A stretch of DNA of 64,000 nt from Thamnidium elegans (taxonomy: Eukaryota > Mucoromycota > Mucoromycetes > Mucorales > Mucoraceae): contig JAIXMG010000001.1 of NCBI GenBank assembly GCA_025201345.1, positions 1,116,001 through 1,180,000 of the forward strand, in the 5' to 3' direction. The first letter of the stretch is position 1. Each line of letters begins with the position of its first letter. The translations under genes and the position numbers were made by a program. Positions 17,661 to 33,300 of this stretch are shown here, piece by piece. The notes under the pieces were generated by a model that searched no databases, was not told the origin of the DNA, and saw only the letters and a list, made by a program, of their open reading frames with translations.

Positions 17661-18292
17661 AAGTTAAAGAAAAAAAAATTAATTACTGATAACTGATGCA
17701 ACATAACCTGTAATTTTCTTAAAATACTACAAAGCTTGAGAAATACCTGTAAACGTCTTGCTGCTTTCCGCAGAAATAATTAAAAAACAAAACAATTTGT
17801 TGAAGTTATCGCTTCTACATTTTAATATCGGGTATTGTCATTTTATATTGTAGACCAACAGTTATTTTCAATTTTCTCATTCAGGCCAAGGCTTTTCTTC
17901 TTTCGGAAGTTTCTCTCTGGGTGTAGTGATTGAATACCTAAAGGGAAAATATGTAGATTTTCAACTGTTGGTACCACAATGACGACGATATATATATATA
18001 CGCATATAAAAGGAGCAGTATAAAAAGGAAATATACAACATGGTTTAAAAATAACATTTTACGTGTCAGTCGACAAAAGGCTTTTTTACTGCAGAAAGAG
18101 TAGAACGCATGAACACGTAAAAAAGGCACGGACATTTATTCAACCGCAATTGTGTTTGCTCAAGATTCAAACACTTGTTTCAATTTGATTGGTCAAAGTT
18201 TTTTTAAAACAAATTTTACTATAAAAACTAAAAACTGACCCTTTTTTTTTTTTCTTTAGTCGACTTTTTTTTTTATTTCTACATACATTTTA
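17661..18292. other. Spacer and promoter of the HAC1-like gene
   Basis: About 630 bp. The last 60 nt before 18293 are T-rich, with TTTTTT blocks, and probably include the transcription start region. No ORF with recognisable content. I did not find a clear UPR element by eye. Confidence 0.45.
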
Positions 18293-18309
18293 TTTTTTCC
18301 ATTGGGTGG
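18293..18309 (+). promoter_or_regulatory. HAC1: 5'-leader arm complementary to the HAC1 intron
   Basis: TTTTTTCCATTGGGTGG lies 29 nt before the bZIP start codon. It is the exact reverse complement of 19025-19041 inside the unconventional intron. In budding yeast HAC1 a comparable leader-intron duplex stalls translation until Ire1 removes the intron. The complementarity is seen directly; the function is inferred from yeast. Confidence 0.75.
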
Positions 18310-18338
18310 TAAAAAAAAGCTTGTAACGTATTATTATA

Positions 18339-19292
18339 ATGAACAACAATAACAATAATAACAACAACAACAACAACAATAACAACAACAATAACGGTGT
18401 AAACGATTTAACCGAGTTATTATCTTTACCTGTTAATTTCACTATGGATCCTTTAGTCTCTCCCTTGTCTATGCCTCAAAAAAGACAAGCATCCTTTTCA
18501 TCAGCATCTTCTGTGTCCTCTGAATCTGAACAATATTCTTCTTCAGAATCTATTGTGTCACTAAAGAAATCCAGGCTCTCATTGGATGACAAAGATCAAA
18601 AGACCAAAGAAAGGTAAAAAAAAAAAAAAAAAAAAAATAACTTTTAATAAATTACTAATTAAATTATATAATAGAATCTTACGCAATAGGGCTGCTGCTC
18701 AAGAATCTCGTGATAAAAAGCGTAGATATGTTTCCGACCTTGAAAGTGCCAACAAAAAGCTTGCGCAAGAAAATGATAAAGCCAACAAGAGAGTTAAAAC
18801 TCTTGAAGAACAAAATGCTGTATTAAATTCTCAATTAGAAGCGTTTACTAGGCAACTAGCAAATTTGCAAGCACAAATTAAATTCAATGCGACTACTCCC
18901 ATCTTGTTTCATGACTTTTGCGATTCAGCACGGATCGCGAAGAAGGAAGGTTTAAAAGGGTACAAGTTAAAGAAGAAGCGCTCAATTATGTGTATATAAA
19001 ATAATCAATTCGTCAACTCAAAATCCACCCAATGGAAAAAAATACATATAAATGTATTATATACGCATACAACTTTTTCTTTTTTTTTTATATATACCTT
19101 TTTTACACTCTCTTTTTCCCTGCAGCGGAGGTTGTGAAACCAGTTGAGAGTATCAAGCAAAGAAGAAATTTATTATTACCATCTCCAATGTTGTCCCCTT
19201 CTTTTTCATCTGATGAAGAATCTGTTTATTCAACTCAAGACTTTCAATTGGATGAATTATTTGACTGGGAAGGTCAACAGGCTGGTAACTAA
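18339..19292 (+). CDS. HAC1: HAC1/XBP1-type bZIP factor of the unfolded protein response, with IRE1-type intron
   Basis: Predicted master regulator of the endoplasmic-reticulum unfolded protein response. Exons: 18339-18613, then after a normal 61-nt intron (GTAAAAA...ATAG) 18675-18928, then 19123-19292 after an unconventional 194-nt intron; 232 aa. It starts with an Asn run (about 17 Asn), a Ser-rich stretch, and the basic region LRNRAAAQESRDKKRR (N-x7-R, about residues 95-110), close to the HAC1/XBP1 pattern. A leucine zipper follows. Spliced, the tail becomes DSAAEVVKPVES... ending in an acidic-hydrophobic DFQLDELFDWEG, a likely activation domain. Unspliced, the frame runs into a basic KKKRSIMCI tail and stops at 18999 (199 aa). 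A GT-AG alternative (18950-19125) would also be in frame, but its donor is poor (GTTTAA) and it ignores the hairpins. RNA reads would settle it. Confidence 0.85.
18916..18942 (+). promoter_or_regulatory. HAC1: 5' IRE1-type splice hairpin
   Basis: Arms 18916-18925 and 18933-18942 pair over 10 bp (seven Watson-Crick, three G-U) around a 7-nt loop CAGCACG. The predicted cut is after loop base 3 (CAG|CACG, after 18928). The core GCGAT/ATCGC is perfect. IRE1 loops in XBP1 and HAC1 are also 7 nt with C at position 1 and G at position 3. Position 6 is C here instead of the usual G. Confidence 0.75.
18929..19122 (+). other. HAC1: Predicted unconventional (IRE1-type) intron, 194 nt
   Basis: Bounded by two 7-nt-loop hairpins and lacking GT-AG ends. 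Removal joins G|CA to give Ala-Ala-Glu in frame. Retention gives a stop at 18997-18999. At 194 nt it is much longer than the roughly 20-nt HAC1 introns of filamentous ascomycetes and closer to the 252-nt yeast intron. It carries the leader-complementary arm at 19025-19041. Confidence 0.75.
19025..19041 (+). promoter_or_regulatory. HAC1: Intronic arm complementary to the 5' leader
   Basis: CCACCCAATGGAAAAAA is perfectly complementary to 18293-18309 (17 bp, including an 11-nt mixed-sequence core). It would be lost on IRE1 splicing, freeing the leader. See the leader arm for the yeast parallel. Confidence 0.75.
19115..19131 (+). promoter_or_regulatory. HAC1: 3' IRE1-type splice hairpin
   Basis: Five-bp stem (19115-19119 with 19127-19131; C-G, C-G, U-A and two G-U pairs) closing the loop CTGCAGC, identical to the 3' loop of metazoan XBP1. 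The predicted cut is CTG|CAGC, after 19122. Confidence 0.75.
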
Positions 19293-30350: not shown

Positions 30351-33300
30351 AATCGTTTAGTCTTCTTCAGTATTGCTTATATTCGACCATAAGTTATGTC
30401 GTCCTCTGTTATAACTGGAAAACACTTTCTTCGTTTTTCGTTAAAAGCTTGACTTTTTTATGATACTTAATTCTATTTATTTATTTTATAGAAATACACT
30501 ACTCTGATAATCAAGATGGTTGTAGAAACTCTTTGCTCTGCTTGGACTCTTGTTTTACTTGGACTCTGAATGAGTCTAGTAATGTTTTTATGGTTTTTGG
30601 TGCCAACTGGTATAGGTATATTTTCAAGCTGATGTTACTCTTCCTCTTGTGCTATTTTTTTTTTCCTCATAAAGGGTTTTTTAAGAGGTTCTTATTGATG
30701 CCATTTATTCATATTTATCACAAAGGCAAAATAATGATACATACATATTGATATCAATTTTTTTTTTATCATTTACACTGTAGTCTCATCATGCTACAAG
30801 TTCCTAAAAGCTAATTCTGGTATGGTCTCTAAATGCAAGTACGCGGTTTCCGTTACAAAAAGTATTTTATGTTGTTACATATGATGTTTAAATATCAATT
30901 TTATGCAGCTTGAAGGGCTGTTTCCCCAGCGTCCAGTGTATACTGATAAAACAATAATCTGTGTAATACATTTATACTAATATCAACTTCTTTTTTTTAG
31001 TCTTCAATGCTACTACTAGGCTAAAGCAACTATTAAGATGTGAACTATTTCAGTAGCTGTTTCATCCAGTCATCAAACTCCTTAAGACGAGACCATTTTT
31101 TTAATTTTATGGGGTAATGATTTTTTACGAACATTTGCTTACTCTATCGCGAAATAAGGAAGAACAGAAAATGTGGCTTAAATAATAAAAAACGAAAAAA
31201 TTTATTTATAATATATACAATTATACAAATACCTAAAAGAAATAAAAATAAAGTTAATAAATTGTAAAAAAATACAAGATAAAACGTTTTTCAATTTGTA
31301 AATGATCATTTTTTTTTCAGAATGTAGTAGCTAGCAGCCATTTTCATCAACTGATTTATGAAGACCGTCGTGATATATTATCATCACTGTAAAAAAAAAT
31401 GACCAGAAACAAAACAAAAAAACTATAGGATAAAACGAAAGTTTACCTTAAATAACTATGAGAAATGAATGTCAGTGCCAAATTCAGAAAAATGGTAATG
31501 AAAAATAGTAAAATTGATATAGAAAAAAAAATGATTCAGAATATCAGACAGGAAAAAACTCTTCAGGTAATCAGACATATGCTTGTCTTTGTTTTTTAAT
31601 ATTCATCAATTAAGAATCATTTCTTTCTTACAATATTTACATATTTACATTAATCGAGAGATTAATTACCATTGGAATACATCTTGAAAATAGACAAGCC
31701 ACAATTATATAGTAGAGCATCTAAAATGTAAATAAAAAATGTAAATAAAAAAGGCTCATGCTAAACAATTAAAAAAAAAGGTTTTCTTCTTTTTTTCATG
31801 TTTCAGAAAAGCATGAATGGTAATATAAAAGTTGTCTCAACATCGAATGACTCGTCAGACTCGTCATCTAATAGAAATCATCATTTAATCATGAAAAAAA
31901 GAAGAAAAGACCTTAATTGGAATTTGTCAAATTACCTATTCAAATGATCTGAAAAAAATATTTAGTAAAAAGTTTTTTTTTGTAAATGTAAAAGAAATTA
32001 TAGATTCAAGGTTCTATCAGACAAACAGCCAATTTGTGTCTACAGTGCATTCAGACGGTAATTCCAACTATATAATAGTTCGATCATCATATGAACCTTG
32101 AACCCATTTCTTTTTAAAAGAAATGAGATTGCTTACCATGACAGAGAATTTTTCGTTTTCATTAAAAAAAAGTAATAAAAAAAACCAAAGAGGATAACAA
32201 GTTATCTATATTTTTAATTGTAAAATATTAGCAAAAAATAAATAAAAAATTGACGTAAAAACGTTAAAATAGTATTAAATGGTTTTAGCATCAGGTATAA
32301 AGATTCACATCAATGGATCAGAAACTCTAGTTTGTTTGACATAAAGCATCTTTTGCGCAAACCAAATAATACTCTTTTAAAGCATTACAAATATTATATT
32401 AACTAACCTTTTGATTTTATTTATAATTAAGAAAAACTACTTACTGTCAGAAATTTAAGCCTTTTTATAACCCTTTTTTTTTTTCTGAAAAAAATTTTTC
32501 TTTCGAAAAAAAACCAGGTATCACTTTGTGCAGTCACTTTTTAAGCCAATTAATTTTTATCGTTCTCCCAAAAATCTCCGTTTTTTTAAGCTTGGCTACT
32601 AAAGGATTACCCTAGAAACTATGAGCTAAATAACAACCTAATTTTGACCTTCGAAACAAATTTAGTTATTATTTTTTTAAGGACCCTGATATTTTTTTTT
32701 ATGTAAAGTATATTTCTCTTAAAAGAAAACATGTTATTTAAAGGTGTCTCTCTTTGAGATATAAATAAGTACGTAATTGTCGAGAGCTAGTTCGCATTAT
32801 CTACTGGAAATTATATATTCTAACACGTTAATAATATATTAAAGTATTTATACTTGTATATATTAAAGTATTAGTATATCTACATTGATTCTCATCCGAT
32901 ATGAGCATAATTTCGTTACTTTTAAAGCATGTTTATTACGAGTATGCGCTTTAAAAGTAACTGTTTTTTTTTGGAATAGTTAATCATAGAACCAGTAATA
33001 AAAATGAGAAGCTGTGTCTGACTGACATGGCATAATAAAGCAGGATGCCAATAAACATCACTAAGAAAAGCGTATAGATGTGCATTTTTTAAAAAAAGAA
33101 AAAATGGGTGTTGAAAGTACCCTGATTTTTTTTTTATTTTTTTTTATTGAAAATAACATTTTTAAACGTTTTAGACAAATAGGACTTGTCAGATAAAGAC
33201 ATAACTGTCTCTAAATAGCAATCAAAGTGTGGATATGTAGCTTATGTATATGTTAAAAAAGATTGTTTTATTGATAAAAGAAAGGATTTGGTCAACTGAT

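What the first reader, a model, noticed from the sequence alone, without database searches (positions are those of the whole stretch)
18293..19041. 17-nt perfect complementarity between the HAC1 5' leader and its intron
TTTTTTCCATTGGGTGG at 18293-18309 (29 nt before ATG) pairs exactly with CCACCCAATGGAAAAAA at 19025-19041, inside the segment that IRE1-type splicing would remove. The 11-nt core is of mixed composition, so chance pairing in a window this small is unlikely. In S. cerevisiae such a leader-intron duplex blocks HAC1 translation. Finding it here suggests translational attenuation of HAC1 is ancient or arose twice.
Basis: partly seen in the sequence, partly recalled or inferred. Interest (0 to 1): 0.9.

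Follow-up and report, generated by a model that had tools for sequence, protein, structure and literature searches.

The report
HAC1 leader pairs with its intron
In a Mucor-like mould, the stress-response gene HAC1 carries a 17-letter stretch in front of its start codon that is the exact complement of a stretch in the segment cut out during stress, and pieces of both stretches recur in related moulds, which suggests that these fungi may hold the message silent by the same trick as baker's yeast but with unrelated letters.

Summary
In detail: 18293-18309 is the exact reverse complement of 19025-19041, 29 nt before the ATG and inside a predicted 194-nt Ire1-type intron (18929-19122) of a HAC1-like bZIP gene. 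No run this long arose in 2000 dinucleotide shuffles (longest 14); among 2524 real placements in the window only this pair reached 17. The fungus is a Mucorales member near Helicostylum pulchrum, with Ire1 RNase and RNA ligase domains in its genome. No relatives' DNA was reachable, but protein records that happen to read non-coding DNA show the arms: the 11-nt leader core fits 2 of 3 leader read-ins, the intron core 3 of 8 relatives' intron read-ins, in two frames each, which argues against coding constraint. The 11-mer is no common genome motif (8 copies in 34 Mb; reversed control 11). Best explanation: a yeast-like leader-intron duplex (-26 kcal/mol) that blocks initiation until Ire1 removes the intron. 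Against: nested whole-mRNA folding gives it zero probability (it must form as a pseudoknot), no compensatory change was seen, no record shows both arms, transcription start and function are untested. Passages seen of published papers confine this block to long introns of Saccharomyces relatives.

The parts
18188..18192 (+). ATTGG (inverted CCAAT box) of the probable promoter
   Evidence: function inferred
18220..18227 (+). TATA-like element TATAAAAA, beginning 73 nt upstream of the leader arm; makes a transcription start upstream of the arm plausible
   Evidence: start site not tested
18293..18309 (+). leader arm TTTTTTCCATTGGGTGG (positions -46 to -30 from the ATG); 11-nt core 18299-18309
   Evidence: core fits leader read-ins of P0057 and P0054
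18339..18613 (+). HAC1-like gene, coding exon 1 (start ATG 18339; no other ATG from 18221 to it)
18614..18674 (+). predicted spliceosomal GT-AG intron, 61 nt
   Evidence: the KER|ILRN join is present in relatives' proteins
18675..18928 (+). coding exon 2, bZIP domain (PF07716, PF00170)
18920..18938 (+). 5' Ire1-site hairpin GCGATTCAGCACGGATCGC, cut inferred after 18928 (CAG|CAC)
   Evidence: deviates from CxG|CxGx at +3
18929..19122 (+). predicted Ire1-type (non-spliceosomal) intron, 194 nt
   Evidence: junction as in gene models P0002 and P0034
18929..18999 (+). intron-coded tail of the unspliced protein (RIAKKEGLKGYKLKKKRSIMCI, stop 18997-18999)
19025..19041 (+). intron arm CCACCCAATGGAAAAAA; 11-nt core 19025-19035; lies near the tip of the predicted long intron hairpin
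   Evidence: core fits P0065, P0066, P0032
19123..19292 (+). coding exon 3 of the spliced form (AEVVKPVES...EGQQAGN, stop 19290-19292)

Best explanation
The 17-nt leader arm and the intron arm of this Mucorales HAC1 mRNA pair with each other while the Ire1 intron is still in place. The duplex sits about 30 nt before the start codon and stops the scanning ribosome, so unspliced HAC1 mRNA is stored silent. When ER stress activates Ire1, the intron is cut out, the exons are ligated (probably by the Trl1-type ligase), the intron arm leaves with the intron, and the spliced mRNA, with the exon-3 tail, is translated. Shown here: the perfect complement, its rarity, the gene anatomy read from sequence, Ire1 RNase and RNA ligase domains in the genome, and recurrence of both arm cores in other Mucorales. 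Inferred: the Ire1 splicing itself, that the leader arm is transcribed, that the duplex forms, and that it blocks initiation.
For: Perfect 17-nt complement, 0 of 2000 shuffles, only this pair in 2524 real placements. Helix -26.0 kcal/mol, core -19.6; opening costs of the two arms in local folds 4.6 and 4.7, so about -17 net. Published yeast values: leader -38 to -20, 11-bp core, 15 bp predicted, -25.15 kcal/mol (PMC8881652, passages). The intron arm lies near the tip of the predicted intron hairpin; keeping it single-stranded costs 4.8 of 61.7 kcal/mol. Leader core CCATTGGGTGG fits the leader read-ins of P0057 (PLGG) and P0054 (LHWVG), 2 of 3 examined; intron core CCACCCAATGG fits P0065 (PPNG), P0066 Mucor lusitanicus (IHPME) and P0032 Apophysomyces ossiformis (PPNG), 3 of 8 relatives examined; chance per fitting segment 0.0002-0.005. 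Two reading frames in each arm argue against coding constraint. The core is not a common motif: 8 in 34 Mb, reversed control 11, two of the 8 being these arms. Ire1 RNase domain with a kinase-like frame just upstream on its strand (by eye), RNA ligase domain. No upstream ATG from 18221 to the start.
Against: Nested folding of the whole unspliced mRNA gives pairing probability 0.00 for all 17 pairs in 6 of 6 transcript choices (three assumed starts, two ends), and forcing the helix costs 11-16 kcal/mol in the 2 choices tried. I put this down to its excluding the intron's own long stem; it would have to form as a pseudoknot, which the program cannot score. In the spliced mRNA the leader arm is itself partly paired locally in the same folds, up to 0.98 per base. 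Total duplex energy is not exceptional. No compensatory change was seen: the visible cores are compatible with one and the same sequence, so conservation cannot be told from a conserved binding site by covariation. No record shows both arms. 5 of 8 relatives' intron read-ins do not show the core (four begin at an AUG followed by GAR, where it would already be cut off), and 1 of 3 leader read-ins (P0020, 13 codons) lacks it. P0054, P0057 and P0065 come from unnamed assemblies and are placed by protein similarity alone; P0032 is a gene model whose segment may not be contiguous DNA. The arms were noticed by eye before the test. The 5' Ire1 site deviates from the published consensus, and no RNA reads were seen. 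The start of transcription is unknown.
Confidence: 0.72

Rival explanations
1. The duplex forms but serves mainly to place or fold the mRNA for Ire1 (for example bringing leader and intron loop together for docking, or hiding the AUG inside the intron arm) rather than to block initiation.
For: The intron arm contains an AUG (19032) in frame with exon 3 in the window, and P0060-P0063 also begin M-E in frame with exon 3. The arm sits near the tip of the predicted intron hairpin.
Against: In P0065 the AUG of the core is out of the exon-3 frame (PPNG is the frame that runs into exon 3), so its product is not conserved. The place of the leader arm before the start codon fits an initiation block, as in yeast.
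Confidence: 0.12
2. The two arms are a DNA site in two orientations, for example a CCAAT-box-like site (ATTGG is in the core) in promoter and intron, or binding sites of one RNA-binding protein; the complementarity is a by-product.
For: The core contains ATTGG/CCAAT, and a CCAAT box can stand either way (recalled).
Against: The 11-mer is not enriched in the genome (8 against 11 for the reversed pattern). A site of 5-10 bp would not by itself give 17 matched bases. There is another ATTGG at 18188 just upstream of the TATA-like element. One RNA-binding protein would be expected to need the same orientation in both arms (inference).
Confidence: 0.1
3. Chance, or a leftover of a small inverted duplication, without function.
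For: AT-rich, low-complexity surroundings; 6 of 17 pairs are T/A; total duplex energy not exceptional.
Against: Run length and recurrence of both cores in other Mucorales in different frames.
Confidence: 0.06

Closest known systems
Saccharomyces cerevisiae HAC1 5'UTR-intron translational block (PMC8881652 and PMC5114014, passages seen; Ruegsegger 2001 and Sathe 2015 only as cited there)
   Same: bZIP gene with long Ire1-type intron; leader arm shortly before the ATG (here -46 to -30, yeast -38 to -20); 11-nt core; similar energy (-26.0 here; -25.15 published); intron arm internal to the intron and removed with it; unspliced ORF ends in an intron-coded tail.
   Different: Other phylum (Mucoromycota). 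Arm sequence unrelated: the yeast leader has C at -33, -32, -30, -29, -27 and -23 by the passages; this arm has C only at -40 and -39, and no register of the 100-nt leader carries C at all six spacings. Intron 194 against 252 nt; exon 3 codes a tail of 56 residues against 18. Function not tested here.
Kluyveromyces lactis HAC1 (PMC6116095, passages)
   Same: Pairing of the 5'UTR (-52 to -28) with the intron, found by sequence.
   Different: Saccharomycetaceae, for which an attenuator like that of S. cerevisiae is proposed.
Cryptococcus HXL1, Candida albicans HAC1, XBP1, bZIP60 (PMC3154848, PMC6116095, PMC4891664, passages)
   Same: Ire1-spliced bZIP mRNAs, as reported there; HXL1 like the window gene also has a short conventional intron upstream (55 nt; 61 nt here).
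   Different: Shorter Ire1 introns; pairing reported as not detected in HXL1, thought excluded by intron size in C. albicans, and said to be found only in HAC1 when set beside XBP1 and bZIP60.

Membership tests
HAC1/XBP1-type Ire1-spliced bZIP mRNA | bZIP domain coded upstream of the unconventional intron | tested here: met
   PF07716 and PF00170 above cut-off
HAC1/XBP1-type Ire1-spliced bZIP mRNA | non-spliceosomal junction joining an in-frame new C-terminal tail | tested here: met
   By sequence only: join 18928/19123 is in frame; gene models of Mucor lusitanicus P0002 and Hesseltinella vesiculosa P0034 have the same FCDSA|AEV junction. No RNA reads were seen.
HAC1/XBP1-type Ire1-spliced bZIP mRNA | stem-loop with CxG|CxGx at both sites (consensus from PMC8881652, passage) | tested here: inconclusive
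   3' site CTG|CAGC fits; 5' site CAG|CACG has C for G at +3 and folds as a 7-bp stem with a 5-nt loop; the 3' hairpin is not predicted in the expected form in isolation
HAC1/XBP1-type Ire1-spliced bZIP mRNA | Ire1 and an RNA ligase in the same genome | tested here: met
   Ribonuc_2-5A over cut-off with a kinase-like ORF upstream on the same strand (by eye); RNA_lig_T4_1 over cut-off in three stretches, one with a stop codon inside (the search ignores introns)
Yeast-type HAC1 leader-intron translational block | long perfect or near-perfect complement between leader and Ire1 intron | tested here: met
   17 of 17 nt
Yeast-type HAC1 leader-intron translational block | both arms conserved in relatives | tested here: inconclusive
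   Cores compatible in 2 of 3 leader and 3 of 8 relatives' intron read-ins, never both in one record
Yeast-type HAC1 leader-intron translational block | duplex predicted in the folded mRNA | tested here: inconclusive
   Nested folding gives 0.00 in 6 of 6 transcript choices; pseudoknots cannot be scored; local accessibility favours it
Yeast-type HAC1 leader-intron translational block | leader arm is in the mRNA | not testable with these tools
   No transcript data; TATA-like element 73 nt upstream
Yeast-type HAC1 leader-intron translational block | breaking the pairing raises, re-pairing lowers, translation of unspliced mRNA | not testable with these tools
   needs a reporter experiment
Yeast-type HAC1 leader-intron translational block | common descent with the yeast element (similar arm sequence) | tested here: not met
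   The six C positions of the yeast arm quoted fit no register of this leader; the yeast sequence itself was not fetched

The most novel reading that the evidence does not exclude
An order-wide, nearly invariant leader-intron lock on HAC1 mRNA in Mucorales, evolved independently of the yeast one with unrelated sequence, held by an 11-nt core (CCATTGGGTGG / CCACCCAATGG) in which the leader kisses the tip of the Ire1 intron hairpin as a pseudoknot.
Probability: 0.55. Interest if true: 0.85.

Novelty: new variant of a known kind. Interest (0 to 1): 0.75.

Why it matters
The passages that I saw treat the leader-intron block as peculiar to long introns of Saccharomyces relatives. A second, sequence-unrelated case in Mucoromycota would suggest that storing a silent, Ire1-releasable HAC1 mRNA is a solution that evolution reaches repeatedly (or is old and mostly lost), and it gives a ready comparative test: the same two short arms can be looked up in every Mucorales genome.

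Tried and rejected
Relatives' DNA: scans of viral contigs and genome contigs with a 20-protein alignment gave 8 and 167 pattern stretches, none confirmed as a relative; the window's genome has no relatives in the genome search. So covariation counting was not possible.

Leader read-ins: a third protein search with exon-1 sequences (52 proteins listed, 7985 best candidates scored) gave 9 new proteins, none with a leader read-in long enough to show the arm. P0064 was first noted as an arm match (starts M-E) but by eye its M-E lies next to the splice site (as SEAFFFP of P0061), so it was dropped. Unspliced tails: 0 of 48 hold the intron core; P0001, P0003 and P0004 were left out because their models run on into exon 3. 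The leader segments and the segments of P0032 and P0066 were cut by hand in that script.

Summed duplex energy as a measure was rejected as uninformative. Nested whole-mRNA folding does not predict the helix.

Rfam at gathering thresholds finds only two snoRNAs in the window. Literature: the listings (30 of 36 shown; 13 of 13; 20 of 40; 20 of 586; 8 of 8; 6 of 6) show by title and start of abstract no paper on HAC1 leader-intron pairing or Ire1 splicing in Mucorales. Two that name a Mucor or Rhizopus beside HAC1 were checked by passages: PMC7711463 mentions Hac1 only in passing, citing yeast, and PMC10781871 mentions Rhizopus only for fumaric acid. Most subscription papers are not held, and Hooks and Griffiths-Jones 2011 (PMC3225973) was not held, so it is known only as cited in others. 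Long HAC1 introns also exist in the Candida parapsilosis group (PMC6222058, passages); that paper's text holds no 'base pair' or 'UTR', so it does not say whether they pair. PMC10512342 on anaerobic fungi (passages) says nothing on the point.

Full report
What is there. The window is AT-rich and lies in a 34.1-Mb, 64-contig genome. The gene at 18339-19292 codes a bZIP protein whose best relative is a Helicostylum pulchrum protein (94% identity over 92%), followed by Mucor and Parasitella, so the organism is a Mucorales fungus; the species was not determined. Exon 1 is 18339-18613, a 61-nt GT-AG intron is 18614-18674, exon 2 ends at 18928. Unspliced, the frame runs into an intron-coded tail and stops at 18997-18999. 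Joining 18928 to 19123 gives an in-frame 232-residue protein with a new tail. The same junction (FCDSA|AEV) is used in gene models of Mucor lusitanicus (P0002) and Hesseltinella vesiculosa (P0034); since the boundaries in the window are not GT-AG, I infer that those models rest on transcripts. The genome has an Ire1-type RNase domain with a kinase-like open frame upstream on the same strand (judged by eye) and an RNA ligase domain of the T4/Trl1 kind (one of its three stretches holds a stop codon, introns being ignored).

The complement. TTTTTTCCATTGGGTGG at 18293-18309 and its exact reverse complement at 19025-19041 are confirmed. In 2000 dinucleotide shuffles of leader and intron the longest complement was 14; of 2524 real placements 3 had 17, all containing this pair. 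The 11-nt core occurs 8 times in the genome, against 11 for the reversed pattern; two of the 8 are these arms, on opposite strands of one gene. It is therefore not a widespread site. The summed duplex energy, by contrast, is nothing special (19 of 1000 shuffles, 700 of 2524 placements as low).

Relatives. No DNA of relatives could be fetched. Protein records from other sources sometimes translate non-coding DNA, and these were used. In P0057 the residues before the presumed start codon include LLFPLGG, which fits TT-CCATTGGGTGG; in P0054 they include LLHWVG, the same core in another frame. In the intron, P0065 has SNPPNGKK, which by eye fits all 17 nt of the arm; Mucor lusitanicus P0066 has KIHPME; Apophysomyces ossiformis P0032 has PPPNG. 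A codon-compatibility test found the leader core in 2 of 3 leader segments and the intron core in 4 of 9 intron segments, the window's own included (3 of 8 relatives), in 0 of 48 unspliced tails, and the wrong core in none of the 60 segments; per-segment chance was 0.0002 to 0.005 for those that fit. The five intron segments that do not fit are 5-22 residues long; four of them (P0060-P0063) begin with M-E, as they would if cut at the AUG of the arm, and P0064 does not bear on it. P0020, with 13 leader codons, shows no arm. I had noticed the arms by eye before the test, and cut some segments by hand. P0054, P0057 and P0065 are from unnamed assemblies and are placed in Mucorales by similarity. 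The distance from leader core to start codon varies (5, 29 and 79 nt in P0054, the window and P0057, if the starts are right). Use of two frames in each arm argues that the conservation is of nucleic acid, not of protein.

Energetics. The helix is worth -26.0 kcal/mol, the core -19.6. Opening the arms in local folds costs 4.6 and 4.7. Whole-mRNA nested folding, however, gives the helix zero probability in 6 of 6 transcript choices and a penalty of 11-16 kcal/mol when forced in the 2 tried, and predicts local pairing of the leader arm in the spliced mRNA. My reading is that the intron arm sits near the tip of a long intron hairpin that also carries the two Ire1 sites; helix and hairpin together are a pseudoknot, which the program cannot represent. 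Leaving the arm free in the hairpin costs 4.8 of 61.7 kcal/mol. I read this as compatible, not as support.

Comparison. In yeast the leader (-38 to -20) pairs with the intron with an 11-bp core and a predicted -25.15 kcal/mol (PMC8881652, passages), and breaking and restoring the pairing moves the mRNA into and out of the translating fractions (PMC5114014, passages). The K. lactis review (PMC6116095, passages) and PMC8002603 (passages) say that the block seems limited to long introns of Saccharomyces and near relatives; in Cryptococcus HXL1 it was not detected (PMC3154848, passages). The yeast arm, by its published C positions, is a different sequence. So the present case works like the yeast one as far as anatomy goes, and probably is not homologous to it.

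Verdict. What is missing is proof that the leader arm is transcribed, joint presence of both arms in relatives, compensatory change, RNA evidence for the splice, and a translation assay.

Noticed in passing
window 18929-18999 and unspliced tails of 48 Mucorales proteins: The intron-coded tail of the unspliced protein has a Cys among its last three residues in 18 of 48 tails (MCI, VCV, SVC and the like), while Cys is 21 of 495 residues in the middle of those tails. It may be a C-terminal degradation signal like that of yeast unspliced Hac1.
   Followed up: partly
window 19032-19292: The AUG inside the intron arm opens a frame through the intron into exon 3 (86 codons); in at least one relative (P0065) the AUG of the core is in another frame, so it is probably not a conserved protein start.
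   Followed up: partly
window 18282-18338 and 19000-19058: RNAduplex extends the pairing with 8 more AT-rich pairs upstream of the arm and a broken stretch up to the start codon; weak, and not exceptional in total energy.
   Followed up: partly
window 18926-18932: The 5' Ire1 site reads CAG|CACG, with C where the published consensus has G at +3; the encoded residues FCDSARI are invariant in the 20 aligned relatives, though D varies in some others such as P0027, P0035 and P0046, so the deviation may be widespread in the order.
   Followed up: no
window 31801-32094, minus strand: Two C/D snoRNAs, snR75 and Afu_300, about 130 nt apart, a possible snoRNA cluster.
   Followed up: no
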